Of a stretch of 64,000 nt of DNA, positions 5,918-57,823 are shown piece by piece. The stretch covers positions 682,001 through 746,000 of the forward strand of contig NC_006046.2 of NCBI RefSeq assembly GCF_000006445.2. Reading direction: 5' to 3'. Made by a program: the position numbers and the translations under genes. Origin of the DNA: Debaryomyces hansenii CBS767. Lineage: Eukaryota; Ascomycota; Pichiomycetes; Serinales; Debaryomycetaceae. How positions within the stretch are numbered: the first letter of the stretch is position 1; each line of letters begins with the position of its first letter. The notes below the pieces were generated by a model that was given only the letters and a program-made list of their open reading frames with translations, ran no database searches and was not told the DNA's origin.

Positions 5918-6492
5918 GAAACCGTATCAATCATATATTCATATTATTTGGTGTTTCTTTTTAGTTTTAAATTTTTGGTTGGATTAGTTTTTTCATCCCC
6001 TTTTATCTAATGTATAAATAAATCACGTTTTGACATGAATGTAGTGTAGACTGATAGACCAAATGAGTAGAGAAAGGTACTGCCAAGAAAGTGTATTTGG
6101 TTAAATTCATTATCTTCCTCGATATTTGTAGAAATCAAATCGTTTACATCATCTGGTATTAATTAAGAAGATCAAGGTTGTTGAAACGTAACAGAATTTC
6201 TAATGTGGCCTTATATTAAGTGCCTCGTACCAATGGAAATTTTAGAAATGTTGATGTTGACAGTCTTATTTTTGATCTTGTATTAGACAAGAAGCTTTTT
6301 TCCTCTGCGTAGATGATTCTAGCTTCAGAACAATGCGAAAATCTATGCAATCTGCGGAGATACATTTGTCAACACCCGGACTTAACATTTTTCATACAAA
6401 TTACTAAATGAAATGCATCTGGTATAAATATAAAACAATCTTCCCTTTAAATTTTTCTAAAAGGGTACAGCTAGAAAGTAGATAAGGAAAGA
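5918..6492. other. Intergenic region, RPS16 terminator and YIM1-like promoter
   Basis: 575 bp without a gene. The left end holds A/T-rich sequence expected at an RPS16 3' end. The right end contains the TATA box of the oxidoreductase gene at 6423-6430. Nothing else was recognised. Confidence 0.5.
6423..6430 (+). promoter_or_regulatory. TATA box of the YIM1-like gene
   Basis: TATAAATA lies 70 bp before the ATG. A comparable TATATAAA stands at about 13711 before the pseudogene copy, supporting it as a real element. Confidence 0.5.
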
Positions 6493-7599
6493 ATGACTTT
6501 TGACAAAGAAAAATTGAAATATAGGGCTGTTACTTATAGTACCAGTGATAAGCCTATGTCTATCACAGAACAAACCATCTCATTGATTAAACAAGCTGAC
6601 GGAAGCTTTGACTTACCGTCAAATACCATATTGGTTAAAGTTCACTCAGCAGCATTGAATCCCTTAGATTTAGTGTTGTACAACTCTTCTAATAGATTAT
6701 TTTCTTATTATAATGATCAGCAAGGTGTTGGTAGAGATTATTCTGGTACTATTGTTGCGATTGGCGATGTTGCTGCTAAGAAGACCGATTTTTGTATTGG
6801 AGATAATGTTTGTGGAATGTATACCCATATACTTGGTAAAGGTACTGTTTCGGAGTATGTTTTGCTTGATGCGATGTCTGTTTCAGACTCTTCTGTTGTC
6901 ACAGTGCCAAAGAATTTGTCTTTGAACGAAGCTGCTGCATGGCCGTTAGTTCTAGGCACCGCATTGGCAATGACACAAGGACGTATTAAAATTGGATCCG
7001 ATGCAAAGGTATTGGTTCTCGGCGGATCTACAGCTGTTGGTAGGTTTTGTATCCAGTTATGCAAGAACCATTTCAAAGCTGGTGAAGTAATTGCTACATG
7101 CTCGTCGTCATCAGCACCAATTATAAGGGAGATGGGTGCGGATGACACTATAGACTATACAAGATATCCTAGTATCGAGGGGCAAGTTTTGCAGGCCGCA
7201 GAGTCAGGTAAATTTGATATTATATTGGATTGTTGTGGTAATGGTGACCTTTTCGCATCCATGCCAAAAATATTAAAACCAAAATCACATTATGTGACTA
7301 TTGCTGGCGATAAAAAGTTCAAGTATTCGAAAGTAAGCTTGTTTAACAATATAATGCCGACTCTCAAGCCTATTTTCAGAATGTTACTCTCTTCTATAGG
7401 GTTAACCTCGTATTCTTTTACTATTACAGGAGTTAGGCCAGGGAAACAATGGGCTGAGTTAGGTAAACAATTAATTGAGGACGAAAAGGTCAAAATAACG
7501 GTTGATAGTGTTCATCAGTTTGAAAATTTTCTTGACGCTATCGAAAGAATGGAGAGTCAAAGAGCGAGTGGTAAAATTATTATTGAATTAGATGTATAG
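6493..7599 (+). CDS. YIM1: YIM1-family zinc-independent MDR oxidoreductase
   Basis: The 368-aa product belongs to the quinone-oxidoreductase branch of the medium-chain dehydrogenase/reductase superfamily and most resembles yeast Yim1. The N-terminal GroES-like domain carries HSAALNPLDLVLYN and VGRDYSGTIVAIGD. The Rossmann domain has the nucleotide-binding loop VLVLGGSTAVGRFCIQ (about residues 171-186), then CSSSSAPIIREMGADDTIDY and FDIILDCCGN. The end, ASGKIIIEL, is typical. Zinc-ligand residues of alcohol dehydrogenases are absent. The substrate is unknown; yeast Yim1 is linked to DNA-damage response and lipid particles. It is the intact partner of the pseudogene at 13759-14265 and the first gene of the duplicated module. 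Confidence 0.88.
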   Translation: MTFDKEKLKYRAVTYSTSDKPMSITEQTISLIKQADGSFDLPSNTILVKVHSAALNPLDLVLYNSSNRLFSYYNDQQGVGRDYSGTIVAIGDVAAKKTDFCIGDNVCGMYTHILGKGTVSEYVLLDAMSVSDSSVVTVPKNLSLNEAAAWPLVLGTALAMTQGRIKIGSDAKVLVLGGSTAVGRFCIQLCKNHFKAGEVIATCSSSSAPIIREMGADDTIDYTRYPSIEGQVLQAAESGKFDIILDCCGNGDLFASMPKILKPKSHYVTIAGDKKFKYSKVSLFNNIMPTLKPIFRMLLSSIGLTSYSFTITGVRPGKQWAELGKQLIEDEKVKITVDSVHQFENFLDAIERMESQRASGKIIIELDV

Positions 7600-7918
7600 T
7601 GTCTTCTTTATTAATTTATTTCGCAATCAACATAAGTCGATTGGGTTCCTACAATAGCACACAATTATAGCGCTAATAATAATCTACGAATTCAGTTTAT
7701 ATTAACATCTTTATCATTTCTAACAGCTATTATACAACTAATCGAAACCACTTGTAATTCTATTCGAGAATCACTATTTGGCTTTATTAAAAAGGCATCA
7801 TTGCAATTAATTCTAGTTTATACATTGCACCTTACTCAAAATTATCAGGCCAACACCTCAAGTTTAAAAGCAACAGAGATAAATTGGCAGATGGTCGTCG
7901 GATGCGATCAAAAGAATT

Positions 7919-7960
7919 GGGGCGGGTCGGGAATTCAACGCAGGGCCTCACGCATGCTTG
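7919..7960 (-). pseudogene. tRNA-Pro(UGG) relic
   Basis: The 3' half of a tRNA-Pro, read on the minus strand. It matches the intact gene at 20673-20780 over about 42 bases (ggggcg.g.t.gggaatt.aac.cagggcctc.cgcatgcttg) with about five changes, including one in the B box. Weak similarity to the 5' half reappears near 8025-8050 (gcgaga...agacca), which would imply an altered intron region. It is non-functional. Confidence 0.65.
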
Positions 7961-8107
7961 AACTGTTGAAGTTGAAATCACTACCTAGAAGGGTGTTTTC
8001 CGAGCCTCTACAGGTGCATTGGAATTGCGAGATGGTGATAAGACCAAGTGCTTTTGAAGGCTGTCGACAATGTAGACAAGATTATCGCCGTCCTATGTCT
8101 ACCATTT

Positions 8108-8230
8108 CATCATAACCGTAAATATGGAGGTTTAATTAATTATTTACCATTTAGTTATACTACTATGTTAATAGCTTCATTATCTTTAATGGCTATACCT
8201 GGTTTAACAGGTTATTACTCTAAAAATTAA
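8108..8230 (+). pseudogene. NUMT: fragment of mitochondrial nad5
   Basis: Translation gives [18 protein letters not shown] followed by [17 protein letters not shown], which is a highly conserved stretch of NADH dehydrogenase subunit 5 with its proton-channel helix. The fragment ends abruptly in stops just after YYSK, where mitochondrial ND5 would continue with D-I. Base composition is much more AT-rich than the flanks. Complex I subunit 5 is mitochondrially encoded in CTG-clade yeasts, so this is a nuclear insertion of mitochondrial DNA. Confidence 0.85.
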
Positions 8231-8328
8231 TAAAAAAATCTGTACAAAAATATGGATTAAATAATTTTATCATTGCATGAAATAGCGTTCGCGGTGAAGA
8301 TGCCGTGTATCCGTAGATTGACAAAAAG

Positions 8329-8400
8329 ATGGAACGCTACATCTATACTAGCATTTGAAAGCATAACTCCAGTTAAACCTGAAATATTAGAATCAAAAAT
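8329..8400 (-). pseudogene. NUMT: fragment of mitochondrial cox1
   Basis: Read on the minus strand, about 8329-8383 encodes SGLTGVMLSNASIDVAFH, a conserved cytochrome c oxidase subunit I segment (normally preceded by FT.G and followed by DTYYVV). The match stops right after the H codon. Orientation is opposite to the nad5 fragment about 100 bp away, so the cluster is a mosaic. Confidence 0.8.
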
Positions 8401-8437
8401 ATATTTAAAATAACATCCAAGATAAACTCGAGATCGA

Positions 8438-8513
8438 AAAGAACGTTGAGGGAATTGAACCCTAAAGAGACTAATTTGCAATCAGCACACTCAACCATGA
8501 GTAAAAAGTTGAA
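8438..8513 (-). pseudogene. NUMT: mitochondrial tRNA-Cys(GCA)-like fragment
   Basis: Read on the minus strand it shows a D-arm (ACTC...GAGT), an anticodon arm GCTGA-TTGCAAA-TTAGT with anticodon GCA, and a T-arm AGGG-TTCAATT-CCCT. The acceptor stem does not pair well, so I treat it as an inserted or decayed mitochondrial tRNA rather than a working gene. It could instead belong to another tRNA if the ends are misjudged. Confidence 0.45.
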
Positions 8514-9285
8514 GAATTTTGGATATGGATATGGACTCTATTGACCCTGCTGATTATATGAGGCGAAATGTCGATCTGAAACTGAAGATACTCTTATTGC
8601 TGACTTGTCGGTTGGTTTTTAAGTAAATCAATACTGTGGTCCATGCCGATCCAAATGATTGGCCAGGTTGAACCAGATTTTGCCAATCGAAGAAGCTTTC
8701 GGTGACTAGTGCAAGTAATCTGGTGAAAAGTTTATATTAAAAAGACTGTTCATACTAAAGAAACTCACATATTAAAGGAACTGTACATACTTAAAAAGAA
8801 TAACAAGAAGAAAAGGGGTCTTTTAACGTTTTATTATTATCATTATTGTTATTATTGTTGTTGTTATTCTAAAAATATATTTGACTTGTTCTTTAACTTT
8901 TTTGTTCCGTGGCGATCATGCGACGTTGCCATTGTCTATGTATGTGAAAGCTCTTAAGGGTTCGAAGTACGTGCGAAAGCGGAATGTTCCAAAAATGTGA
9001 GTCTCACTCGGCTTGCTCAGAATGCTTGAGAACTTAACCTTGGTAGTATGCCTACGGCAGAAGGCTGTGTTATAAGCGACTTGTTTCTTCTAATAATCTA
9101 ATGTTATTCATAACGTAGAGATAGATCTGACATGACATGCAGCCATGTTGCCTCGATCGTCCGATCTTGTGCATGCGGCTTACACAGATAAGGACTTGTG
9201 TGTCAAAGCAATGTAGTTACTGTTTTAACTATAGAAGCAAATAATACATATATTAGGTACGAAAAATAACCAACTCTTTTTCTTT

Positions 9286-9602
9286 TTAATTCAACAAGGC
9301 CAAGGTGACATCGCCCTTTATCTTAGCACGAAGTTCTATATCAACATCCAAGTTCAAGTCAAGTCTTAATCGTAATGCACCACTGTCATCTTTCTGTTGC
9401 TGTTTCTGTGGCTGCTGTTCTTGCTGCGGCTGCACCTGTTGCTCTTGGGGTTCTTCCTTCGTATCATCACCAACCTTGGCCATTTGTTGCTGCTTTTTGC
9501 GTTCTTGTTTTGCAAGAGCTTTCTGCGCTTGGGCCTGCTTCTTCTTTTTCTTCTTGCTACCCTTTTCAACAGCAGGTGGTTCTGGTTCTTGTTCTGGCTC
9601 TA

Positions 9603-9636
<34 letters not shown>

Positions 9637-9831
9637 CGTGTCTGACTCTTCTTCGGAATCGGAGTCGGAGTCATCTGAATCTGAATCGGAATCGGAGTCG
9701 TCTTCGTCCTGTTGTGTTTCATTCACAGGTTCTGGTTCTTCTACTTTAGGCTGAGGTTGTTCTTGAGAACCCATTTTGTTCTTTTGGTTCTTAGAACCAG
9801 TCTTTTTCTTTGGTTGTTGTTTAGAAGACAT
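9286..9831 (-). CDS. Disordered acidic/Lys-rich protein with conserved amphipathic tail, copy 1
   Basis: The 181-aa product is low-complexity almost throughout. The N terminus is Lys/Gln-rich (SSKQQPKKKTGSKNQKNK). Next come PKVEEPEPVNE, an Asp-Ser run and Glu-Pro repeats at about residues 47-88, a lysine block (GSKKKKKKQ) and a Gln-rich segment. The last 30 residues differ sharply in character: they alternate hydrophobic and charged residues (LRLRLDLNLDVDI, then RAKIKGDVTLALL), as a beta hairpin would. The paralogue at 14598-15068 preserves both ends nearly unchanged while the middle varies. There is no signal peptide. It is transcribed divergently from the LEA-like gene at 10520, 688 bp away. 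I recall similar tails in filamentous-fungal hypothetical proteins but know no function. Confidence 0.8.
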
Positions 9832-10519
9832 TGTAAACGACTATAAAAAAACACTTTTCAACAAGACAGAACTTGAACCAAAAGAGCGAACACTGCTTGC
9901 TTTATTTAATATCAGCCCAAGAGAGCAATCTAAGTTATTCCCCTTCCCGAAGAACTTGCCTATTATAGATGACAGCAAGAAAATCAAGGAAATCCGACAT
10001 CATTTATTCCGGACCTATAAATGAGGTACTATTAGGAGGTTCCAACTCCGCCTCTCCACAGGAACCGGTAAGATTGCTGGTGAAAAAAAAAAAAAAAAAA
10101 ACCCGCATATGTTCCTGAAGCTCGCGCAGGTCAGAACAAGGAGAAAAATGTTCCTATTTAGTTCAAAAGCAACCTAATCGGTGAGCTTAGGTCAGATATT
10201 ATGGTTTTCTTATAAATAAAAAAAGTAGAAATCCGTTCGAAACGAGTCGCTTCCATCTGCAGTTGCTTCCTTGCCTTTTGCAAGCGGTGATGTCGCACAG
10301 TTGCGGTCCAATTTTTTTAGCAATAAAGTTAACCTGGTAATTGATCATCATTCGTGGTTTTCGGAAATTACGCTTGAACTGCGTCTTTCTAGTACATATA
10401 AAGGAAAAGGCAATCACCAGATGCTGTCTACGTATAAATTTTATATTATCTCCCCTTTTTTAGCTGTTTTAGATATTACTATCCTAAGCTTAAAATTTCT
10501 TATTATATTAAAGAAGAAA
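9832..10519. promoter_or_regulatory. Divergent promoter of the disordered/LEA-like pair, copy 1
   Basis: 688 bp. Segments conserved with the copy 2 promoter (15069-15693) include 'cagccca.gagagcaa' near 9913, 'cctataaatgaggt' near 10014, and 'ccagatgctgt..(a/g)cgtat' near 10418. The TATA-like CGTATAAAT at 10431-10439 serves the LEA-like gene. A CCCCT at 9940-9944 could be a stress-response element (inference). A 19-A tract at 10083-10101 would disfavour nucleosomes. Confidence 0.55.
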
Positions 10520-12808
10520 ATGACCGATATAATTTCAAGTGCTACAAAGCCCGTCAAGGACACCGTCTCCGACAAACCAGGAGAAGGTGGCGGCGATGAT
10601 AATCAAACCAACCTTATCGACTCTACCCAACAGAAGGTCTCTGACACTACAAGTCAAGCCACAGGCACTGTCAATTCCGTCAAGGAAAATGTTCAAGAAA
10701 AGACTGGTGAAGTGACCGACCAGGTGTCATCAACTGTGCCAGGGTCCGAACTTGTGACTTCAAAACTTAAAGAGTTGACAGGGTCACACAAGCTCAACGA
10801 TAGCGGCCAGGTGACTGACAAGGCTGGAAATGTGCTAGCCACTTTCAAAGAAGGAAGTGGTCAATTGAAACGCATTGCTGGCAAGAAGGTTGATATTGAC
10901 GAGTTGGGAAATTTGACAAGAAAGGGCAAGAAGCTTGGTTCCATTGAGCCTGTTCTTGACGATGCTCAACAGAAAGCCACTGACACAACAAATCAAGCCA
11001 CCGACACTGTCAAGTCTGCCAAGGACGATGTGCAAGACAAGGCCGGTGAAGCGGCCGACCAGGCTTCATCATCTGTGCCAGGGTCCGACCTCGTAACTTC
11101 CAAACTTAAAGAGTTGAAAGGGACATATAAGCTCAACGATAGCGGCCAGGTGACTGACAAGGCTGGAAATGTGCTAGCCAATTTCAAAGAAGGAACTGGT
11201 CAATTGAAGCGTATTGCTGGCAAGAAGGTTGATATTGACGAGTTGGGAAATTTGACAAGAAAAGGCAAGAGTCTTGGTTCCATTGAGCCTGTTCTTGACA
11301 ATGCTCAACAGAAAGCCACTGACACAACAAGTCAAGCCACTGACACTGCCAAGTCCGCCAAGGACAATGTCCAAGACAAGGCCGGTGATGTGAAAGGCAA
11401 GACCGGTAAAGTGGCCGACCAGGCTTCATCTTCTGTGCCAGGGTCCGAACTTGTGACTTCAAAACTTAAAGAGTTGACAGGGTCACACAAGCTCAACGAT
11501 AGCGGCCAGGTGACTGACAAGGCTGGAAATGTGCTAGCCACTTTCAAAGAAGGAAGTGGTCAATTGAAACGCATTGCTGGCAAGAAGGTTGATATTGACG
11601 AGTTGGGAAATTTGACAAGAAAAGGCAAGAGTCTTGGTTCCATTGAGCCTGTTCTTGACAATGCTCAACAGAAAGCCACTGACACAACAAGTCAAGCCAC
11701 TGACACTGCCAAGTCCGCCAAGGACGATGTAAAAGGCAAGACTAGTGATGTGCAAGGCAAGACCGGTGACGTGAAAGGCAAGGCCGGTAATGTGGCCGAC
11801 CAGGCTTCATCATCTGTGCCAGGGTCCGACCTCGTAACTTCCAAACTTAAAGAGTTGAAAGGGACATATAAGCTCAACGATAGCGGCCAGGTGACTGACA
11901 AGGCTGGAAATGTGCTAGCCAATTTCAAAGAAGGAACTGGTCAATTGAAACGCATTGCTGGCAAGAAGGTTGATATTGACGAGTTGGGAAATTTGACAAG
12001 AAAAGGCAAGAGTCTTGGTTCTATTGAGCCTGTTCTTGACGAAGATAACGAGTCTGATGAATCCGGAGGCTCTGATGACGACACTGATGACGAGGAGCAA
12101 TCATTGGAAGGCGGAACTGTCCGTGAAGACGGAAAGGTTGTCAACGATGAAGATGAAGTGGTAGGCCAGGTCGTTGAAGGGTCTTACAAGAAGCTTGAAC
12201 GGTTAGTTGGCCGAAAGGTGACTTCTGATCACACTATTGTCAATAAAAAAGGGAAGGAATTGGGCACTGTCGAACCAATTGACGATGATTCTGATGACGA
12301 CTCTGATGACGAGTCTGATGATTCCGAGGACGAGTCTGATGATGAAGAACAATCGTTGGAAGGCTACACTGTTCGTGAAGACGGAAAGGTGGTCAACGAT
12401 GAAGACGAAGTGGTAGGCCAAGTTGTCCAAGGTTCTTACAAAAAGCTTGAACGATTAGTAGGCCGAAAGGTGACTTCTGAACACACCATTGTCAATAAAA
12501 AAGGCAGGGAGTTGGGCACTGTCGAACCAATTGACAATGAATCTGATGATGACTCTGATGACGATTCTGATGACGACACTGATGACGACACTGATGACGA
12601 CACTGATGACGAGGAGCAATCATTGGAAGGCGGAACTGTCCGTGAAGACGGAAAGGTTGTCAACGATGAAGATGAAGTGGTAGGTCAAGTCGTTGAAGGG
12701 TCTTACAAGAAGCTTGAACGGTTAGTTGGCCGAAAGGTGACGTCTGATCACACTATTGTCAATAAAAAAGGGAAGGAATTGGGCACTGTCGAAGCGCTAG
12801 AAAAATAA
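10520..12808 (+). CDS. LEA-like repeat protein (DUF3659-type repeats), C-terminally truncated
   Basis: A 762-aa hydrophilic protein. The start at 10520 (MTDIISSATKPVKDTVSDK) is chosen because it aligns with the start of the paralogue at 15694; the frame upstream to 10271 is unsupported. LEA-like stretches (QQKATDTTNQATDTVKSAKD) separate four type A repeats (near 10730, 11066, 11426, 11804) built on KLNDSGQVTDKAGNVLA and KKVDIDELGNLTRKGK. Three related type B repeats follow (near 12096, 12348, 12618; REDGKVVNDEDEVVGQVV, GRKVTSDHTIVNKKGK), joined by (DDSD)n linkers. Fungal LEA-domain proteins with such repeats are linked to stress protection. Unlike copy 2, it ends after the last repeat: the C-terminal domain of about 320 residues is missing. 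Confidence 0.88.
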   Translation: MTDIISSATKPVKDTVSDKPGEGGGDDNQTNLIDSTQQKVSDTTSQATGTVNSVKENVQEKTGEVTDQVSSTVPGSELVTSKLKELTGSHKLNDSGQVTDKAGNVLATFKEGSGQLKRIAGKKVDIDELGNLTRKGKKLGSIEPVLDDAQQKATDTTNQATDTVKSAKDDVQDKAGEAADQASSSVPGSDLVTSKLKELKGTYKLNDSGQVTDKAGNVLANFKEGTGQLKRIAGKKVDIDELGNLTRKGKSLGSIEPVLDNAQQKATDTTSQATDTAKSAKDNVQDKAGDVKGKTGKVADQASSSVPGSELVTSKLKELTGSHKLNDSGQVTDKAGNVLATFKEGSGQLKRIAGKKVDIDELGNLTRKGKSLGSIEPVLDNAQQKATDTTSQATDTAKSAKDDVKGKTSDVQGKTGDVKGKAGNVADQASSSVPGSDLVTSKLKELKGTYKLNDSGQVTDKAGNVLANFKEGTGQLKRIAGKKVDIDELGNLTRKGKSLGSIEPVLDEDNESDESGGSDDDTDDEEQSLEGGTVREDGKVVNDEDEVVGQVVEGSYKKLERLVGRKVTSDHTIVNKKGKELGTVEPIDDDSDDDSDDESDDSEDESDDEEQSLEGYTVREDGKVVNDEDEVVGQVVQGSYKKLERLVGRKVTSEHTIVNKKGRELGTVEPIDNESDDDSDDDSDDDTDDDTDDDTDDEEQSLEGGTVREDGKVVNDEDEVVGQVVEGSYKKLERLVGRKVTSDHTIVNKKGKELGTVEALEK
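10730..12800 (+). repeat. Intragenic repeat array of the LEA-like gene, copy 1
   Basis: Seven repeats of two related classes: type A near 10730-10960, 11066-11300, 11426-11660 and 11804-12040; type B near 12096-12290, 12348-12540 and 12618-12800. Type A copies are almost identical in DNA, including long exact blocks such as the one around 'gtgctagccactttcaaag', so they expanded or were homogenised recently. Confidence 0.88.
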
Positions 12809-13021
12809 TCCTCGGAAGGCTGCACTGTTCAGCCGTGGGCCAATTTTGCATACCAATTTCATATTGCAAGAGATTCTGTAACTATATCGGATTGCCACCC
12901 ACAAAGGATTATCACCCACAAAATCGTTTACAGTACGACCATGTATTGCCCATTAAATTGCGAAATTCAGTTTAGCCAAATTCCTTGAGGCTATCCACTT
13001 TTCACTTCTCGTTCAACTTTC
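12809..13021. other. Remnant of the lost LEA-like C-terminal part
   Basis: Directly after the stop codon the frame reads S-S-E-G-C-T-V, matching the SLEGCTV that opens the next type B repeat in copy 2. Similarity is lost within about 25 bp. This indicates that copy 1 once continued and was cut by a deletion. The rest of the stretch shows no gene. Confidence 0.6.
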
Positions 13022-13355
13022 GGTATGAGCTATATACTCTTAATTTTCCATAGTAATACAAGACTTTCACTTCGCCTAGGTTATGTTTTCTTCCTATTTC
13101 TTTTACTCCCTCTATATATTTAGCAGTAGCCCATACTCTGATATCCTTTTCCTCGAATGGCTTTTAAAGAGTTTAACAACAGGTTGATTTATGGCAATCT
13201 CGTCTTCAAATATGTCTTCCATTCTCGCTTTTAATCCATTTTCTGTTACGACTTCTAATTCTTATAACCCTCCACGTAATTTTAACTTTGATATCTTCAG
13301 TACTATACAAAATGTCAAAGCCACTACTTTGGAGTAAGTCTTGTTTTATGTCCAT
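13022..13355 (-). pseudogene. Decayed protein-coding relic, family unknown
   Basis: On the minus strand three adjoining frames give protein-like sequence: from an ATG at 13355, MDIKQDLLQSSGFDILYSTE and on to KVKITWRVI; then, frame-shifted, ELEVVTENGLKARMEDIFEDEI and NQPVVKLFKSH; then, shifted again, RVWATAKYIEGVKEIGRKHN and EVKVLYYYGKLRVYSSY. Codon use looks real but the frame is broken at least twice. I do not recognise the family. Confidence 0.55.
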
Positions 13356-13758
13356 TGTTGGCGTGTATGTATTTAATCCTGCTGTATGTGAAACTGAGTC
13401 TTCTATTGATATATGAGTATATTCTTAAGTTATAGGTCTGGCGGGGTTGTCTCACCGTAGCCCGAAGAATTCCAGTACTAAAATAACGTTCTATATGCTG
13501 TTGACGAACGTGCTCTGGGATGGTATGCCTTAATTACACCGTACCACCATGTATTCTTCCATATGCAGACACATAACTTGCATCTCCCTTACCTATTCTC
13601 CAATTTTGTAACGTTCCTACCAAATACTAGTCTCAATGTAATGATTATCGAACCCAAATGGCATGACTGCATTCGCAAATTATTTGGTGCTAACGTATAC
13701 CAGGACATATATAAATGCAACATGTTGGACAGAAGAAGTGCTTTTTGATTGCAGAGAA
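13356..13758. other. Intergenic stretch before the YIM1 pseudogene
   Basis: About 400 bp without a recognisable gene. It ends with a TATATAAA at about 13711 that corresponds to the promoter TATA of the intact YIM1-like gene. Confidence 0.4.
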
Positions 13759-14265
13759 GAATAACGACTTTTGCTCAAGAAAAACTGAAGGACAAGGTTG
13801 TTACGTATAGTACGCATAGTACCGGCGATAAGCCGACGTCTCGCGGAACAAACTCTCTCATTGATTAAGCAAGCTGGTGGAAGGCTCAATTTGCCGTCAA
13901 ATAACATGTTGGATAAAGTTTTTTTAATAGCGATGAACCCCGATTTTCTGGTTTGTACAATTCTGAATGGATTTTTTTCTTTTTCGTATCATAATGATCA
14001 GCAGGGTCTCGGTATAAGACCAATTGCAGCATCCGAGATATGGGATGTATACTCATATCCTTGGTGGTTACGATACTGTTTCTGAGTATGTTTTGCTTGA
14101 TGCTAATTCGGTTACAGACTCCTCTGTAGTGAGAATCCCAAAGAACTTATCGATGAATGAGGCATGGCCCTTAGTTCTGGCATAGCATGGCAATGATCCA
14201 AGGACGGATTAAAATTTCTACATGCTCGTCATCTTCGGCACCAATTGTTATAGAGGGTGCAAAAT
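13759..14265 (+). pseudogene. YIM1-like pseudogene, copy 2
   Basis: This is a broken copy of the oxidoreductase gene at 6493-7599. Matches run from the second codon (acgacttttgctcaagaaaaa against atgacttttgacaaagaaaaa; the ATG itself is lost) through the equivalents of SLIKQADG, LPSNTIL, NDQQGVGRD, TVSEYVLLDA and VPKNLSLNEA. There are several frameshifts and an in-frame TAG after PLVL. A deletion then joins 'ggacggattaaaatt' directly to the codons for CSSSSAPI, removing the nucleotide-binding glycine motif. The last third is absent. The gene is clearly dead, while its partners in the same duplicated module stay open. Confidence 0.92.
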
Positions 14266-14597
14266 ATGCAAGTGGAATGTTTCGAAAATGCTTACAATGC
14301 TTTGTGAACTTTAACCCTAGTGTATGCCCTAGCGCACAACACAGTGATATAAGGGACTTGTTTTCTTCTAATCTGATCTATTGTTAAATAAGAAATCGTG
14401 TTGTAGAGATAGATCTGACATGGCATGCAGCCGTATTGTCTCGATCGTGCGGCTTACACAGATAACAAAGACTTGTGTGTCAAAGCGACGTTGTTACTTT
14501 TTTTAACTATAGAAGCAAATTATACATATATTGAGGACGAATCTAAGATAAACAAAATGAAACTTAAGAGTTGGTTTTTTATCTTGTTTTTTTTTTC
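14266..14597. other. Duplicated 3' flank of the small disordered-protein gene
   Basis: No gene. About 14270-14520 aligns with 8965-9240 (shared 'gacttgttt.cttctaat', 'gtagagatagatctgacatg', 'cggcttacacagata', 'actatagaagcaaat.atacatata'). It is the downstream flank of the minus-strand gene, kept in both modules. Confidence 0.65.
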
Positions 14598-15068
14598 TTA
14601 CGACAACAAGGCCAAGGTGACATCACCATGGATCTTGGCACGAATTTGTATATCAACATCCAAGTTCAAGTCAAGTCTTAATCGTAGTTCCTTCTTATCT
14701 TCCTCTTGCTTCGGCTGCTGTGCTAGCTGCGACTGCCCTTGTTGCTGAGGTTCCTTCATATCCTCACCAGCCTTGGTCATTTGTTGCTGTTTTTTGCGTT
14801 CTCGTTTTGCAAGAGCGTTCTGTGCTTGCTTCTTCTTTTTCTTCTTGCTCGCCTTTTCATGAGTAGGTTCTTCAACTGCTGGTTCAGGTTCAGGTTCTGG
14901 CTCTTCTTCGGAGTCGTCTTCGGAATCGGAGTCGTCTTCGTCCAGTTGCGATTCGTTCACTGGTTCTGGTTCTTCCACCTTGGGCTGAGGTTGTTCTTGA
15001 GAACCCTTGTTGTTCTTTTTGTTCTTAGAACCAGCCTTTTTCTTTAATGTTTGTTGTTTTGAAGCCAT
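14598..15068 (-). CDS. Disordered acidic/Lys-rich protein with conserved amphipathic tail, copy 2
   Basis: The 156-aa product is the paralogue of 9286-9831. The N terminus (ASKQQTLKKKAGSKNKKN) and the block GSQEQPQPKVEEPEPVNE are kept. The acidic Ser/Asp/Glu-Pro section is shorter. The lysine block (ASKKKKKKQ) and the alternating tail (LRLRLDLNLDVDI, then RAKIHGDVTLALL) are almost identical to copy 1. Variation in the middle with fixed ends suggests the ends carry the function: a basic N terminus and an interaction or self-assembly tail. It is divergent from the full-length LEA-like gene at 15694. Function unknown; no targeting signal seen. Confidence 0.8.
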   Translation of the reverse strand: MASKQQTLKKKAGSKNKKNNKGSQEQPQPKVEEPEPVNESQLDEDDSDSEDDSEEEPEPEPEPAVEEPTHEKASKKKKKKQAQNALAKRERKKQQQMTKAGEDMKEPQQQGQSQLAQQPKQEEDKKELRLRLDLNLDVDIQIRAKIHGDVTLALLS

Positions 15069-15693
15069 TGTAAACGACTATGTATAAGAAGAAGGTTGTA
15101 ATGATGAAAAAAAATTTTGAAACAAGAGAGATAATTCTGCTCGCTTTACTTAATATAACTTTCAAAAAAATCTTGTTCTCAGCCCAGGAGAGCAAGCTAT
15201 TTTCTTTAGGTTCTCCTTTTGTCTTTTCCCCATGTACGTGCCTGCTATACATGACAAGGAAGTCCGCCATCATATTTTGGGCCTATAAATGAGGTTAATA
15301 CGAGATGTAAAGGTTGCGGTGCGGCGTGGAAGGCCGGGGCCACGCATATAGGCAGTACTTCTGTCCCTTCTCTGTGCCCCTCTGTGCATTCTCTGTGCCT
15401 TCTTTGTGCCTTACGACAACAATTGCTCCTCGCATACTTAGTCGAAACGAGCCGTTTTTTTCCTGCAACATTTCAAACCCTGACATGACAAGCAACCCGG
15501 AGCAATTATTTTTTTTAGATTGCTTGAAAGAAGGTAGAGGAGGAACCAAGGTAATGTTGTATTCTACAAGAGAAAAGCAACCACCAGATGCTGTATGCGT
15601 ATATAAACTCTATGCGATATTCCTATTTTTTATTATTTTAATAGTCTTATTATAAGCTTACAATTCGTTATTGTTATTAACTAAAGAAAAAAA
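15069..15693. promoter_or_regulatory. Divergent promoter of the disordered/LEA-like pair, copy 2
   Basis: 625 bp, with blocks shared with the copy 1 promoter: 'cagcccaggagagcaa' near 15181, 'gcctataaatgaggtt' near 15282 and 'ccaccagatgctgtatgcgtatataaa' split across 15580-15606. The TATATAAAC at 15599-15607 is the likely TATA of the LEA-like gene. A CCCCT at 15377-15381 could be a stress-response element (inference). A short tandem run of '(c)tctgtgcc' units lies at 15367-15411. Confidence 0.55.
15367..15411. repeat. Short tandem repeat of tctgtgcc-like units
   Basis: Four imperfect units (tctctgtgcc, cctctgtgca, tctctgtgcc, tctttgtgcc) lie within the copy 2 divergent promoter. They are not present at the matching place of the copy 1 promoter, so they arose after the duplication or were lost there. 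Confidence 0.7.
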
Positions 15694-18513
15694 ATGACAG
15701 ATACAATATCAAAAGCTACAAAGCCTGTCAAGGACACTGTATCCGACAAAAAAGGAAAACTGGGCGGCGGTGGTGATAAGCAAACCAACGCTATCGACTC
15801 CGCGCAACAGAAAGTCTCTGACACAAAAAATAAAGCTACTGACACTGCCAAGTCCGCAAAAGACGATGTACAAGGCAAGGCCGGTGAAGCGGCCGAGCAG
15901 GCTTCATCATCTGTGCCAGGGTCCGAACTTGTGACTTCCAAACTTAAAGAGTTGAAAGGGTCGCACAAGCTCAACGATAGCGGCCAGGTGACTGACAAGG
16001 CCGGAAATGTGCTAGCCACTTTCAAAGAAGGAAGTGGTCAATTGAAGCGTATTGCTGGAAAGAAGGTTGATATTGACGAGTTGGGAAATTTGACCAGAAA
16101 GGGCAAGAGTCTTGGTTCTATTGAACCTGTTCTTGATGAAGAGGATGAGTCTGATGATTCCGACGATTCTAATGATGATTCCGATGATGATTCTGATGAT
16201 GATTCTGATGAAGAACAGGAAGAAGGTGAACATGATGCTGTCAATTCCGTCAAGGACAATGTACAAGGCAAGGCCGGTGCAGCGGCCGATCAGGCTTCAT
16301 CATCTGTGCCAGGGTCCGACCTTGTGACTTCAAAACTTAAAGAGTTGAAAGGGTCACACAAGCTCAACGATAGTGGCCAGGTGGTTGATGACGCGGGAAA
16401 TGTGTTAGCCACTTTCAAAGAAGGAAGTGGTCAATTGAAGCGTATTGCGGGCAAGAAGGTTGATATTGACGAGACGGGAAATTTGACCAGAAAGGGCAAG
16501 AATCTTGGTTCTATTGAGCCTGCTCTTGACGAGGAGGATGAATCGGATGACTCTGAAGATTCTGATGACGATCCTGATGATTCCGACGAATCTGATGAGG
16601 AAGAAAAGTCCTTGGAAGGCTACACTGTTCGTGAAGACGGAAAGGTTGTCAACGATGAAGACGAAGTGGTAGGCCAAGTTGTCGAAGGTTCTTACAAAAA
16701 GCTTGAACGATTAGTAGGCCGAAAGGTGACTTCTGATCACACTATTGTCAATAAAAAAGGGAAGGAATTGGGCACTGTCGAACCAATTGACAATGAATCT
16801 GATGATGACTCTGATGACGAATCTGATAATTCTGACGAGTCTGACGAGTCTGATGAGGAAGAAAAGTCCTTGGAAGGAAACACTGTTCGTGAAGATGGAA
16901 AGGTTGTCAACGATGAAGACGAAGTGGTAGGCCAAGTTGTCGAAGGTTCTTACAAGAAACTTGAACGATTGGTTGGGCGAAAGGTGACTTCTGATCACAC
17001 TATTGTCAATAAAAAAGGGAAGGAATTGGGCACTGTCGAACCAATTGACAATGATTCTGATGACGACTCTGATGACGACTCTGATGACGACTCTGATGAT
17101 GAAGAGCAATCATTGGAAGGCTGCACTGTTCGTGAGGACGGAAAGGTGGTCAACGATGAAGACGAAGTGGTAGGCCAAGTTGTCGAAGGTTCTTACAAGA
17201 AACTTGAACGATTGGTTGGGCGAAAGGTGACTTCTGATCACACTATTGTCAATAAAAAAGGGAAGGAATTGGGCACTGTCGAACCAATTGACAATGATTC
17301 TGATGACGACTCTGATGACGACTCTGATGACGACTCTGACGATGAAGAGCAATCATTGGAAGGCTGCACTGTTCGTGAGGACGGAAAGGTTGTCAATGAT
17401 GAAGACGATGTGGTAGGCCAAGTTGTCGAAGGGTCCTACAAGAAGCTTGAACCGTTGGTTGGCCGAAAGGTGACTTCTGATGATACCATTGTCAATAAAA
17501 AGGGCAAGAAATTGGGCACTGTCGAACCAATTGATGATGATGAAGGTCCAAGCAAAGAAGAGCAAGAGCGGAACATGAGCCGGTTGAGCGGATTGATTCG
17601 AAGCTCCATTGACAAGGTCCAGCCATTCACGGAAATGATCCAATCCAAGGTGGACCAAGAAGAATTACCAGTTGACGAGTTAAACTCGGTGACTACACGA
17701 GCGGAACGGATCATTGGTGAAGTTCGTGGTGGTATTAGGGCAATTGATCCAGATGAGAGAATGATTAATGATGCCAAGGAGCAAGTTAATGGTGGTGGCG
17801 AGGCTGGTAGAGAACAACAAGAATTGGTCAAGACAATTCAGGAGCTTGACGAGCAAGAAGAGATTGTCCAGAATGCTCGGGAAAAGTTGGAAAACTATAA
17901 ACCACCCGAACATGAACCAACTGAGGAAGAAATAGAAGAAAAGAGACAATTAGAAGAAAGAAGAGAAAAAGCGGGGCAGATGTCAAACTCTATTGACAAT
18001 TGTATCGACAAGACTAAGCCGTTGTTGAACCAAATCAAGCAGCACATGGACAATGCTGACCGTGACCAAAAGAATGATAACTTGGACGAAGAAAAGTTGG
18101 TCAATGCGGTCAAGCCATTGTTACAAGAGGCTACTAATGTTTTGAACGAGACTTGGGGTGCCATTCGAGCCTTAGATCCGGATGGCAAGATTCAGAAACA
18201 GGCCAAGGGTAAGGGTAAGGGTGAGGTGACTTCCGAAGAGTACTACTTGGCTGATCGGTTGGCGTATCTCAGTGACCATGTACAATCGTTTATTGACGAT
18301 ACTAGAAGCAAATTGGACAACATGCCAGAGGCCAAGAAGGACTTGAACCCATTGTTGGATATGTTGCAACTGCCATTGTTTCAAATTATTAGCGCAGTGG
18401 GGTTGTTGTTGTCCGGTGTTTTGGGCTTGGTAAAAAATTTGCTAGGCGGACTTGGACTTGATAATTTGTTGAGTGGTATTGGTCTTGAAAAAGTGTTAGA
18501 AGGTATATTGTAA
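15694..18513 (+). CDS. LEA-like repeat protein with C-terminal domain (DUF3659/DUF6987-type), full length
   Basis: A 939-aa hydrophilic protein. The N terminus (MTDTISKATKPVKDTVSDKK) and LEA-like QQKVSDTKNKATDTAKSAKD are followed by two type A repeats (near 15903 and 16290). Four type B repeats follow (near 16605, 16863, 17106, 17346) with acidic (DDSD)n linkers. From about 17550 comes a domain of about 320 residues, rich in charged helices with two similar halves (SIDKVQPFTEMI...GGIRAIDPDERM and SIDNCIDKTKPLLNQIK...GAIRALDPDGKI). It ends in a hydrophobic, Gly/Leu-rich tail (VGLLLSGVLGLVKNLLGGLG). This layout matches fungal LEA-domain proteins. A role in desiccation or osmotic protection is inference, though apt for a halotolerant yeast. 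It pairs divergently with the 156-aa disordered protein. Confidence 0.88.
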   Translation: MTDTISKATKPVKDTVSDKKGKLGGGGDKQTNAIDSAQQKVSDTKNKATDTAKSAKDDVQGKAGEAAEQASSSVPGSELVTSKLKELKGSHKLNDSGQVTDKAGNVLATFKEGSGQLKRIAGKKVDIDELGNLTRKGKSLGSIEPVLDEEDESDDSDDSNDDSDDDSDDDSDEEQEEGEHDAVNSVKDNVQGKAGAAADQASSSVPGSDLVTSKLKELKGSHKLNDSGQVVDDAGNVLATFKEGSGQLKRIAGKKVDIDETGNLTRKGKNLGSIEPALDEEDESDDSEDSDDDPDDSDESDEEEKSLEGYTVREDGKVVNDEDEVVGQVVEGSYKKLERLVGRKVTSDHTIVNKKGKELGTVEPIDNESDDDSDDESDNSDESDESDEEEKSLEGNTVREDGKVVNDEDEVVGQVVEGSYKKLERLVGRKVTSDHTIVNKKGKELGTVEPIDNDSDDDSDDDSDDDSDDEEQSLEGCTVREDGKVVNDEDEVVGQVVEGSYKKLERLVGRKVTSDHTIVNKKGKELGTVEPIDNDSDDDSDDDSDDDSDDEEQSLEGCTVREDGKVVNDEDDVVGQVVEGSYKKLEPLVGRKVTSDDTIVNKKGKKLGTVEPIDDDEGPSKEEQERNMSRLSGLIRSSIDKVQPFTEMIQSKVDQEELPVDELNSVTTRAERIIGEVRGGIRAIDPDERMINDAKEQVNGGGEAGREQQELVKTIQELDEQEEIVQNAREKLENYKPPEHEPTEEEIEEKRQLEERREKAGQMSNSIDNCIDKTKPLLNQIKQHMDNADRDQKNDNLDEEKLVNAVKPLLQEATNVLNETWGAIRALDPDGKIQKQAKGKGKGEVTSEEYYLADRLAYLSDHVQSFIDDTRSKLDNMPEAKKDLNPLLDMLQLPLFQIISAVGLLLSGVLGLVKNLLGGLGLDNLLSGIGLEKVLEGIL
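15903..17535 (+). repeat. Intragenic repeat array of the LEA-like gene, copy 2
   Basis: Two type A repeats (about 15903-16140 and 16290-16530) and four type B repeats (about 16605-16795, 16863-17050, 17106-17295, 17346-17535). Type B copies 2 and 3 are nearly identical in DNA. The array shares long exact blocks with copy 1 although the two genes differ in repeat number (7 against 6), pointing to ongoing exchange. Confidence 0.88.
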
Positions 18514-48075: not shown

Positions 48076-50436
48076 TCATAATTGAATCGTAATAGGGATT
48101 CTTAAGTACATCAGATCATTATTTTGCAATTTGACGTGAAGTCTCAAGTAATAAGCTCTACCTATTATACAACTCTGGAAGTTTGGCACGAGGGAATAGG
48201 CGTCAACGCCGAGGTCATCGTGAGACCCTGTATTGTCTTTTGAAAAGACATTCTTTAAGTCAACCAGGAGGTTGACCTTCTTCGAATAAACTTCTTTGTC
48301 GCTGGAAGACTTTGCTTCCTGTGAAGAAACAAACGTCCAAGGGGTTGTTGCATGGTTTGAAGTCACTTTAGATTCGTCAACTCGTAAGCAGTTGTATTTT
48401 GTAGATAAATTGGCTAAACTCTTGATGTCCATGATTAATTGACTATCAACGTTCAAGATTTCAAAACTTAGTTTTCTCGACAAATCAGTGATTTCTTCTA
48501 GATATTTCTGGAATGGCTTAATGACGTAGTGCTCAATATTGTCAGTATCACCCGGTTTATTCTTAAATAACAAATCACTAAATATCTCAACAGGAATAGG
48601 ATATTTCTTTGATCTATATGTAAAGACAATTAATTCTGCACTTATGGATTTAACATCCGGAGGTTTAGACGCTTTAGAGCTTTCATTCGATGAGAAAACA
48701 AATTCTAACGGAATGTTAAGCTTCGTCGATAATTCGTTATTAGGTGGATGCGGATGCAAAGTTCTATATTTATATGGAGGCATATATTTCAATTTGTAGT
48801 CCATTTTAATTGTCGTCAAGCCAATAATTCCTACAACTTTAGGAGCAGCAGTCAACGATTTCTTCTTATAAGGTACGAATAATTCATACTTGGCACCTTT
48901 TTCCTTTCTCAATAATTTATTTTTACTCAGGTTACTGTTACTCCCTTCGTTATATAATTGTCTTCTTTTAGATATAGACGGAATTCTTGTAATTTCGTAG
49001 GTTTGTTCATTATTCAGGATTGTACGCTTCTCATCCAATAAATCTTTACCTAAATGAATTTTCTGGGTTACCCTTTCAACTAAGTTGTTATATATAATCT
49101 TTGATTCATTTTCAATTATGTGACTGTCGAAAGCCTTCGATAACCGCTCCTTTGGTATTAATCTGATAAAACAACTGGATTCATTAACAATTAAGAATTC
49201 ATCCTTCTCTGATTTGACCGCAGAATTTGGCATGATAATACTATAATCAGATTCTTTAGCAATAACCCTTGCCTCAACACTATAACTAACAGAAGTATCA
49301 GGGAACGATAAATCCTTTAATCTTTTATCAAGGACCCCATTAAAACCAGGTTTCCTAGGCTGATTCAATACTGGAGCCGTCCCACCAATTGTGAATTCAG
49401 TATTTGCAGAAACTCCTTGTCGAAATTTTCTCAAGTTTTTCAAGAATTGGTCTTTTGCTAAACCTAACGTAGGCAACATCTCGCAATGTCTCGGCAAATT
49501 ATGGAATTCGCAGGCCACATCCAATAACTTATCTGGAACACGGAAATTGAAGAATTTCTTGTAAGTGACATCGGGTTCGAAATATTTCTCCATAGGAAAT
49601 CTCATGCATGCGTTATCAAGTGGATCATACTGGTTCTCCTCAGCGTCATCATTCAAATCGGCTGGAGTCCATGATGCACTATAATCAAACATATTGAGGA
49701 ATTTATAAAAGATATGCGACTTCTTCGAATCCGTATCACTTGTAACCGAAATTTTACCTTCAAAAACAACTGAGAACATATCAAACAGAATAGGAAGAGT
49801 ATGCTTGTTTCTGATTGTGATAAATCCGTTTATAGAATCCCCAGGCTGATATTCTATAGTCAGAGGGTCGATAATAGTGGGACGTACACCCCTCTTGCAC
49901 GCCTTTTCAGTAATTTGGATTTCAATTTTCACTCGATTAGCAACAGCACTGTTAATATCACCAATTTTCTTCAATCTATGCGTGTTTCCCAAAAGACTAT
50001 CTTCCCATCTAGTGGGTGATTCATTTATGAGATTCCCCGAGTACGAATGAGCAGCTGCCGCAGTAGAGTGTGACGATCCTGGGGAATCTGTCATATTAGG
50101 AAAGTAACTCCCAGTACTCGGATCAACGCTTCCAACGGGAGTTTCTGTAGAATCCTCGTGGTACGTAGGTGGCGCATATCTCAAGTCTTCGTTCGACGGG
50201 CGAAGGTTTTTCGAAAACGTCGATTGGTAAAGTTGGTATGAAGGCAAAATATTCCATATCGGAACATCCTCGTACGCCGGCGACGCTAATGGCTCGTTCA
50301 TTTTCTCATTTGGTGTTGTGTCACTCTTCGTATCTTGTACCGGTATAGGTATCTCATCGCTATGGTCTGATGTTATGCTATTTTGCACCAGGGTCTTAAA
50401 ATCACGCTTGGAAGGGTTGGTTCCAAAAAATTTCAT
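48076..50436 (-). CDS. Bul1-like arrestin adaptor of the Rsp5 ubiquitin ligase, paralogue A
   Basis: A 786-aa protein. Bul1/Bul2 link the HECT ligase Rsp5 to permeases and other cargo for ubiquitination and sorting. The N terminus has LPSY (64-67) in ILPSYQLYQSTFSKNL and a PPTY motif (89-92), the likely Rsp5 WW-binding site. The Bul1 N-terminal arrestin fold follows (IDPLTIEYQPGDSINGFITI, FDMFSVVFEGKISV, VTYKKFFNFRVPDKLLDVAC). The Bul1 C-terminal region ends VPNFQSCIIGRAYYLRLHVK. Two further members lie at 55334-57601 and 57824-60037, all on the minus strand. It is divergent from SLI15 over a 457-bp promoter. Confidence 0.9.
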   Translation of the reverse strand: MKFFGTNPSKRDFKTLVQNSITSDHSDEIPIPVQDTKSDTTPNEKMNEPLASPAYEDVPIWNILPSYQLYQSTFSKNLRPSNEDLRYAPPTYHEDSTETPVGSVDPSTGSYFPNMTDSPGSSHSTAAAAHSYSGNLINESPTRWEDSLLGNTHRLKKIGDINSAVANRVKIEIQITEKACKRGVRPTIIDPLTIEYQPGDSINGFITIRNKHTLPILFDMFSVVFEGKISVTSDTDSKKSHIFYKFLNMFDYSASWTPADLNDDAEENQYDPLDNACMRFPMEKYFEPDVTYKKFFNFRVPDKLLDVACEFHNLPRHCEMLPTLGLAKDQFLKNLRKFRQGVSANTEFTIGGTAPVLNQPRKPGFNGVLDKRLKDLSFPDTSVSYSVEARVIAKESDYSIIMPNSAVKSEKDEFLIVNESSCFIRLIPKERLSKAFDSHIIENESKIIYNNLVERVTQKIHLGKDLLDEKRTILNNEQTYEITRIPSISKRRQLYNEGSNSNLSKNKLLRKEKGAKYELFVPYKKKSLTAAPKVVGIIGLTTIKMDYKLKYMPPYKYRTLHPHPPNNELSTKLNIPLEFVFSSNESSKASKPPDVKSISAELIVFTYRSKKYPIPVEIFSDLLFKNKPGDTDNIEHYVIKPFQKYLEEITDLSRKLSFEILNVDSQLIMDIKSLANLSTKYNCLRVDESKVTSNHATTPWTFVSSQEAKSSSDKEVYSKKVNLLVDLKNVFSKDNTGSHDDLGVDAYSLVPNFQSCIIGRAYYLRLHVKLQNNDLMYLRIPITIQL

Positions 50437-50893
50437 TAAACTTCACTTTTTCTTGCCGTCTAACTATTAACCTGTTTAGTCTATTACCAATAACGGCTCT
50501 GTTGAGTTGATTAAAATATTGCGATGCTTGCTCTTATCTATTGTGATGCCCAACAAAAATATTTCTTTTACCACAATACCTTCGTAATAATCAATTTCCA
50601 ATACTGTTAGTTTGAAATATCAACCAACCCAGAATTGGATACTACTTATACACTTATTTTTATTCGATTCAAGGACCACTCCGGGAAGATATTCGAAGGA
50701 ATATAAGATCAATTTGACATGTTAACAAGGCACATGTCGCGTATGAAAAAATAATTTAACCACAAAATGTAAATACAATTCCTATTGGTTCCAGATCATC
50801 TTATACACTTATATTCAACGGTAATTAACGGAAAGTTGATAATACGAAGTAGGTGAAGTGGAGTCCGTGACTCAGGTTTGAAATAGCTATAAA
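50437..50893. promoter_or_regulatory. Divergent promoter, Bul1-like A and SLI15
   Basis: 457 bp with no gene. No element can be assigned with certainty. A short GTCGCG near 50735 resembles part of a cell-cycle MCB box, which would suit SLI15, but the match is weak. Confidence 0.35.
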
Positions 50894-53980: not shown

Positions 53981-54053
53981 TATATATAATATCACTGTAA
54001 ATATGTACCTATAACATAAATACTTAATGTACAACCGAAATAACATGAATTTA

Positions 54054-55208: not shown

Positions 55209-55333
55209 GGTTAAAGTTGACTTAATGAAATGTTTCTTTACATGTGGTTGGAAAATTTTTTGTATTTGCGCAGAGATTGCAACATGCGAAAAATATATCT
55301 ATGAGAACTATATGCTATGCAAAATTAAATATA

Positions 55334-57601: not shown

Positions 57602-57823
57602 CCTATCAAGAATCTATAAGAAACAGTGAATAACCAATAACAGGTATTAGATTCTTAGCCAAATCTCTATTAGAATCGTCTTATGTATGTACAATAACAC
57701 TAACGGTAGTTTTTGATATCATGAATTTTATCATGAAATTAGGAAAAACTGAAATTCTACCGAAGTGCGGCTGGGTATTTACGGTATGTTTACGGGAACG
57801 GAATTGTATATTGTTCTATATGA

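What the first reader, a model, noticed from the sequence alone, without database searches (positions are those of the whole stretch)
9286..18513. A duplicated divergent pair: disordered protein with an invariant alternating tail plus a LEA-like repeat protein
Twice in this window a small acidic/lysine-rich disordered protein is transcribed divergently from a giant LEA-like repeat protein (9286-12808 and 14598-18513). The small proteins vary in the middle, but their first 15-40 residues and last 30 are almost unchanged. The tail alternates hydrophobic and charged residues for about 28 positions, a beta-hairpin or amyloid-like pattern. Keeping the pair and its shared promoter together through duplication, while the neighbouring YIM1 copy decayed, suggests the two proteins work together. 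Inference: a stress-induced assembly in which the tail binds or self-assembles and the LEA-like partner acts as a hydrated protectant. I know of no described role for the small family.
Basis: partly seen in the sequence, partly recalled or inferred. Interest (0 to 1): 0.75.

Follow-up and report, generated by a model that had tools for sequence, protein, structure and literature searches.

The report
Fungus-wide beta-patterned protein tail
Two neighbouring small yeast proteins end in a 28-residue tail that is strongly conserved in moulds, mushrooms and yeasts but for which no name was found, and both lie beside genes for a bead-like repeat protein, which suggests but does not prove that the two work together.

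Summary
The duplicated pair is real, in a 12.18-Mb yeast genome (very probably Debaryomyces hansenii). Three corrections. The copies differ: giant A lacks the DUF6987 domain that giant B keeps, and tail A has Lys where 66 of 66 distinct homologous tails have His. Only the gene-proximal ends of the intergenic region are conserved. The giant is not mainly a hydrated LEA protein: AlphaFold2 predicts DUF3659 beta modules on acidic linkers, then a helical domain.

The stronger finding is the tail: present in 125 of 125 fetched homologues; the 46 with species names are all fungal (Mucoromycota, Basidiomycota, Ascomycota). Pfam scans found no family for it and the text searches no paper with its strings. 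Upstream, 84 of 97 non-redundant members have a polybasic cluster (10 expected).

In this genome both families were found only at this locus. Partnership elsewhere could not be tested: no genomic context was reachable; 0 of 120 listed giant homologues (of 469) carry the tail, and none of those named is a mushroom. Most likely the tail is a fold-on-binding beta peg on a disordered adaptor; the giant is a plausible, unproven partner.

The parts
9286..9831 (-). Small protein A, 181 aa: basic N-terminus, acidic/Ser and EP-repeat tract, KKKKKK cluster, Q-rich linker, C-terminal tail
9286..9375 (-). Tail A (last 29 codons plus stop): LRLRLDLNLDVDIELRAKIKGDVTLALLN; Lys replaces the His seen in 66 of 66 distinct homologous tails
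9832..10519 (.). Divergent intergenic region A (688 bp); conserved with B only towards its two ends, including a 43-bp block at 9985-10027
10520..12808 (+). Giant A, 762 aa from the start codon that matches giant B; 7 DUF3659 modules by genome search (10775-12805; 8 stretches by hmmscan); no DUF6987
13760..14216 (+). Decayed YIM1-like copy of the intact gene 6493-7599; upstream part of duplication unit B
14598..15068 (-). Small protein B, 156 aa; keeps the invariant tail positions including His
14598..14687 (-). Tail B (last 29 codons plus stop): LRLRLDLNLDVDIQIRAKIHGDVTLALLS
15069..15693 (.). Divergent intergenic region B (625 bp)
15694..18513 (+). Giant B, 939 aa: low-confidence (disordered) N-terminus (residues 1-75), six DUF3659 beta modules on acidic linkers, helical C-terminal part
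17554..18507 (+). DUF6987 region of giant B: partial match 17554-17898, full match 17935-18507, with a hydrophobic helix (residues 893-922)
6493..7599 (+). Intact YIM1-like zinc-type dehydrogenase gene, upstream part of duplication unit A

Best explanation
The small proteins belong to a fungus-wide family, unnamed in what I could search, of disordered adaptor proteins. Most members share a layout: a polybasic cluster, often an acidic/Ser tract, a low-complexity linker, and at or very near the C-terminus a 28-residue beta-patterned peg. I infer that the peg is unstructured alone and folds by adding a strand to a conserved partner (fold on binding), while the polybasic cluster engages an acidic surface such as membrane phospholipid, nucleic acid or an acidic protein. 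In D. hansenii a plausible partner, or at least a same-pathway gene, is the divergent DUF3659-DUF6987 protein: a string of small beta modules on acidic linkers ending in a helical, partly hydrophobic domain. The acidic linkers could bind the basic cluster and the beta modules could accept the peg. A tandem duplication made two copies; copy B keeps the full layout, copy A lacks DUF6987 and the tail His and is drifting or specialising. Shown here: family, layout, conservation, locus unique in this genome as far as searched, duplication, domain difference. Inferred: fold on binding, the partner, and any stress role.
For: Tail found in 125 of 125 fetched homologues, 66 distinct tails, with positions 3-6 (LRLD), 8 N, 17 A, 20-22 HGD and 27 L invariant. 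Both faces are conserved, charged residues included, which points to a specific binding surface more than to a generic amphipathic strand. 82 of 125 end within 3 residues after the terminal LL; of the other 43, 25 continue with YV, as an unspliced GTATGT intron start would read (inference, DNA not read). Outside the tail only Met1 reaches 90% conservation in 83 aligned members. Polybasic cluster in 84 of 97 non-redundant members against 10.2 expected from shuffles. AlphaFold2 gives no secondary structure for the monomer, mean pLDDT 53, highest block means (61-68) in the tail. In this genome the tail and DUF3659 were found only at this locus. Giant B is modelled as beta beads plus helices.
Against: No fusion seen: 0 of the 120 listed giant homologues (of 469) carry the tail. 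The 46 named tail proteins include 25 from mushrooms (Agaricomycetes; class recalled), while I saw no Basidiomycete name among the 120 listed giants, so the tail may act without the giant; unnamed rows and the other 349 hits are unknown, and a Cryptococcus DUF6987 protein is mentioned in print. One linked locus in one genome is a single independent case. Between the two copies the tail is no more constrained by dN/dS than the middle. 13 of 97 non-redundant members lack the polybasic cluster. The monomer prediction is of low confidence throughout. No expression or binding data were reachable.
Confidence: 0.38

Rival explanations
1. The tail is a homotypic assembly motif: it stacks with itself into amyloid-like or beta-sheet fibrils or condensates, and the disordered part hangs off as a brush. 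The giant is a co-regulated neighbour or client.
For: Strong hydrophobic/polar alternation over 28 positions: 92.7% hydrophobic (LIVMFAC) at odd and 12.2% at even positions over 66 distinct tails; no stable monomer fold predicted; disordered carrier.
Against: The polar face carries invariant charges (R4, D6, D22), unusual for a pure stacking motif (inference); no prion or amyloid-signalling family among the Pfam matches of 83 members at E up to 0.1, though such motifs need not be in Pfam; no obvious internal repeat by inspection.
Confidence: 0.22
2. The tail is a general fungal docking module unrelated to the giant, for example for a nuclear factor (basic clusters resembling nuclear localisation signals, and an LxLxL core like the EAR repressor motif, both recalled) or for the translation machinery. 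The adjacency in D. hansenii is coincidental.
For: Tail and giant are not fused in the 120 listed; many tail proteins in mushrooms without a listed giant; polybasic clusters in 84 of 97, some of KRKRP type by inspection.
Against: In this genome both families were found only at the same locus, unlikely by chance for two single-locus genes among several thousand (gene number recalled; the pair was, however, picked because it is adjacent); both families occur in Mucoromycota and Ascomycota.
Confidence: 0.3
3. One reading: a stress-induced hydrated shield in which the LEA-like giant is the protectant and the tail protein assembles it.
For: Disordered small proteins; acidic linkers; relatives of giant B with the same two domains are named LEA domain protein in Aspergillus (for example P0150, P0153); Aspergillus loci under that name are enriched in conidia or more abundant in a space-station strain, though whether those loci hold DUF3659 was not verified.
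Against: No LEA Pfam model matches either giant at E up to 1; 621 of 939 residues of giant B have pLDDT of 70 or more, with beta modules and helices.
Confidence: 0.1

Closest known systems
DUF3659-DUF6987 proteins of fungi (Pfam PF12396 + PF22485; some called LEA domain protein in Aspergillus)
   Same: Giant B carries the two families that all 120 listed homologues carry, in the order DUF3659 repeats, then DUF6987
   Different: Giant A lacks DUF6987; both D. hansenii giants sit beside a tail-protein gene, untested elsewhere
LEA group 3 (LEA_4, PF02987) and hydrophilins
   Same: Hydrophilic, Lys/Asp/Thr-rich N-terminal stretch of the giants; disordered small proteins
   Different: No LEA Pfam match at E up to 1; giant B is mostly predicted folded; the small proteins end in a conserved beta-patterned tail
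Fungal amyloid signalling motifs (HET-s/HRAM type; recalled)
   Same: Short conserved motif at the end of a disordered fungal protein
   Different: No such family among Pfam matches; no two-fold pseudo-repeat by eye; invariant charged residues
Mitochondrial beta-signal (recalled consensus: polar-x-G-x-x-hydrophobic-x-hydrophobic)
   Same: C-terminal beta pattern with a conserved Gly
   Different: Residue G-2 is V/I in 66 of 66 distinct tails and G+3 is T/E in 66 of 66, so the phase is wrong

Membership tests
DUF3659 (PF12396) | Match above Pfam's curated cut-off | tested here: met
   Giant A 247 bits, giant B 264.5 bits, cut-off 24.8
DUF6987 (PF22485) | Match above Pfam's curated cut-off, giant B | tested here: met
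   258.9 bits, cut-off 26
DUF6987 (PF22485) | Match above Pfam's curated cut-off, giant A | tested here: not met
   No match in giant A at E up to 1; genome search finds it only in giant B
LEA group 3 (PF02987) | Pfam LEA_4 match | tested here: not met
   Absent from matches up to E 1 for both giants
LEA group 3 (PF02987) | Largely disordered in water | tested here: inconclusive
   Predicted only: 621 of 939 residues with pLDDT of 70 or more, 236 below 50
Pan-fungal tail family (unnamed, defined here) | 28-residue tail with the ten invariant positions L3 R4 L5 D6 N8 A17 H20 G21 D22 L27 at or near the C-terminus | tested here: met
   Copy B meets all ten; copy A nine of ten (Lys at 20)
Amyloid signalling motif (HET-s/HRAM) | Sequence match to a known family | tested here: inconclusive
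   No such family among Pfam matches of 83 members at E up to 0.1; not every such motif has a Pfam model
Amyloid signalling motif (HET-s/HRAM) | Self-propagating assembly | not testable with these tools
   Needs peptide or in vivo assays
Mitochondrial beta-signal | Polar residue at G-2 and hydrophobic residue at G+3 (recalled consensus) | tested here: not met
   G-2 is V/I in 66 of 66 and G+3 is T/E in 66 of 66 distinct tails
EAR-type repressor motif (LxLxL; recalled) | LxLxL core | tested here: met
   Positions 3 and 5 are L in 66 of 66, position 7 L in 62 of 66; a short pattern, weak evidence; co-repressor binding not testable
HsbA/MP1-like lipid-binding helical bundle (family name recalled) | Fold similarity of the DUF6987 bundle | tested here: inconclusive

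The most novel reading that the evidence does not exclude
Fungi share an ancient, undescribed two-component system: a disordered polybasic adaptor whose 28-residue C-terminal beta peg inserts into the beta modules of a DUF3659-DUF6987 bead-chain protein, building a reversible scaffold in stressed or dormant cells. The absence of DUF6987 and of the invariant tail His from the same duplicate (copy A) would then be two halves of one interface decaying together.
Probability: 0.15. Interest if true: 0.85.

Novelty: new variant of a known kind. Interest (0 to 1): 0.6.

Why it matters
A motif conserved across Mucoromycota, Basidiomycota and Ascomycota on otherwise unalignable disordered proteins, for which the Pfam scans and text searches found no name, implies an old and important interaction that has not been described there. 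It gives a short, testable peptide bait. If its partner is the DUF3659-DUF6987 protein, it would also give a first biochemical handle on proteins that are filed as LEA proteins by name.

Tried and rejected
Neighbourhood in other fungi: scans of viral contigs and genome contigs with tail alignment A4 found 44 and 69 pattern matches, none confirmed by tblastn; metagenome contigs were capped at zero and not tried. I compared by eye the locus tags of the tail list and the giant list for adjacent numbers and saw no genome in both lists. Fusion test: 0 of 120 listed (of 469 hits) carry the tail.

Print: 0 papers for DUF3659, 0 for six tail strings, 1 paper, not relevant by its listing, for a descriptive search, 0 for a D. 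hansenii salt-transcriptome combination. DEHA2D07/08/09 gave 4 papers, listing only, holding DEHA2D09 tags only (the tag range is my guess). LEA searches: listings, except as cited. DUF6987 and Aspergillus identifiers gave 7 papers; passages seen in PMC12345193, PMC6143729, PMC6168859 and PMC12731236, and in PMC4869263 one passage and part 1 of 2 of section 13; the other two (PMC6213286, PMC8874384) by listing only. My recalled identifier AN8640 proved to be conF, unrelated.

Known limits: the 120-row lists hide 637 of 757 tail hits and 349 of 469 giant hits. Tails were found with tail-based queries, so invariance is partly selected; one search scored only the 7997 candidates sharing most words. 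A3 used 7 of 13 first hits, A6 83 of 127 tail proteins, A7 34 of 120 giant homologues plus the two window giants. One search used 97 of 127 prefixes (one too short, 29 redundant). One search's narrower pattern matched 123 of 125; the two misses differ from it by one residue each and are counted.
Full report
Setting. The window is G000:C4:682001-746000 of a 12,181,948-base, 8-contig genome. Size and contig number equal what I recall for Debaryomyces hansenii CBS767 (nuclear plus mitochondrial), and the five genes examined use CTG only 0-2 times each, as expected where CTG means Ser. I used code 12 in scripts; the species name rests on recall.

Observation. The two divergent pairs exist. BLAST aligns unit A (6489-12793) with unit B (13760-17541): YIM1 to a YIM1 relic, small to small, giant to giant. 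In the small CDS 6 of 6 indels are multiples of three; in the 3' flank 3 of 8; in the YIM1 relic 5 of 10. dN/dS of the small genes is about 0.33 (0.145/0.44). So the small ORFs look translated and selected, and the YIM1 copy is dead.

Between the copies the last 30 residues are 83% identical, like the first 45 (82%), against 67.5% in the middle; the tail's dN/dS (0.110/0.30) is no lower than the middle's (0.201/0.56). The intergenic alignment is 66-87% identical over the first 240 columns (small-gene side), 68-80% over the last 140 or so (giant side), and 35-46% over columns 300-600, within the range of 20 shuffled controls or below it (39-51%). Two proximal promoters were kept, not one whole shared region. 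The copies differ in structure: giant A has seven DUF3659 modules by genome search (eight stretches by hmmscan) and stops; giant B has six and then DUF6987. No relic of DUF6987 was found downstream of giant A.

The tail is the real find. A search with the last 42 residues of small protein A gave 13 proteins at E up to 1; a profile of seven of them gave 757 at E up to 0.1, of which 120 were listed. All 125 fetched proteins hold the pattern, in 66 distinct versions; copy B's tail is identical to these at 17 to 24 of 28 positions, median 20. By my count 46 of the 125 carry a species name: 3 Mucoromycota, 25 Basidiomycota, 18 Ascomycota, none outside fungi (phyla recalled). Invariant positions are L3, R4, L5, D6, N8, A17, H20, G21, D22 and L27. 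Hydrophobic residues fill 92.7% of odd and 12.2% of even positions. Copy A breaks H20. 82 of 125 end within three residues after the last Leu; of the 43 longer ones, 25 continue with YV, which I read as an unspliced intron beginning GTATGT inside the last Leu codon (inference; DNA not seen). The prefixes hardly align, but 84 of 97 non-redundant ones hold a cluster of at least 5 K/R in 8 (10.2 expected), starting a median of 68.5 residues before the tail, and 62 of 97 hold an acidic/Ser cluster (12.6 expected); acid precedes base in 37 of the 56 with both. Local Pfam scans show no family for it: of 83 members scanned, no family matches more than 2 at E up to 0.1. Precomputed Pfam labels exist for 2 of the 125 (PF28325); the local scan of those two did not return that model.

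The giant. The joined-query search returned 469 proteins at E up to 0.01; all 120 listed carry both DUF3659 and DUF6987, among the named ones Chytridiomycota (Spizellomyces), Mucoromycota (Umbelopsis, Mycotypha) and Ascomycota including Lipomyces (phyla recalled). None of the 120 carries the tail. AlphaFold2 with 36 sequences predicts beta modules (block means mostly 70-94), disordered acidic linkers and a helical C-terminal part, mean pLDDT 73, pTM 0.35; a 19-residue window at residue 895 reaches a Kyte-Doolittle mean of 2.25. Fold comparison of the helical part is inconclusive.

Does the pair work together? For: in this genome the tail and DUF3659 were each found only at this locus, and both families are widespread in fungi. 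Against: the duplication is tandem, so it counts as one linkage, not two; the pair was singled out because it is adjacent; no fusions in the rows seen; the tail is common in mushrooms while no listed giant homologue bears a mushroom name, although a Cryptococcus DUF6987 protein is mentioned in print. The coincidence in copy A (no DUF6987, no tail His) is suggestive but is one case. Not testable here: gene order in other fungi, expression, binding.

Verdict. A duplicated pair, correctly spotted, with a proposed mechanism that is only partly supported. The new content is a pan-fungal C-terminal motif, unnamed in what I searched, with a shared upstream layout. The likely reading is a fold-on-binding peg on a disordered adaptor (0.38), with self-assembly (0.22) and a giant-independent docking role (0.30) as live rivals.

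Noticed in passing
window 8117-8507: Mosaic insertion of mitochondrial-type DNA: five fragments from five separate places and both strands of contig C8 (81-99% identical) joined end to end, with slight overlaps, between YIM1 and small gene A; that C8 is the mitochondrial contig is inferred.
   Followed up: partly
G000:C2:415600-418068: Two further open YIM1-like genes in tandem (73% and 69% identical to the window copy); no DUF3659 match was found on that contig.
   Followed up: no
window 48076-60037: Three large minus-strand ORFs (48076-50436, 55334-57601, 57824-60037) share an N-terminal stretch beginning ILPSY and further motifs, apparently paralogues, arrestin-like by eye.
   Followed up: no
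P0105, P0119 (Verticillium, 259 and 255 aa): Only these two of the 125 fetched tail proteins carry a precomputed Pfam label (PF28325.1), which the local Pfam scan did not return.
   Followed up: partly
   Followed up: no
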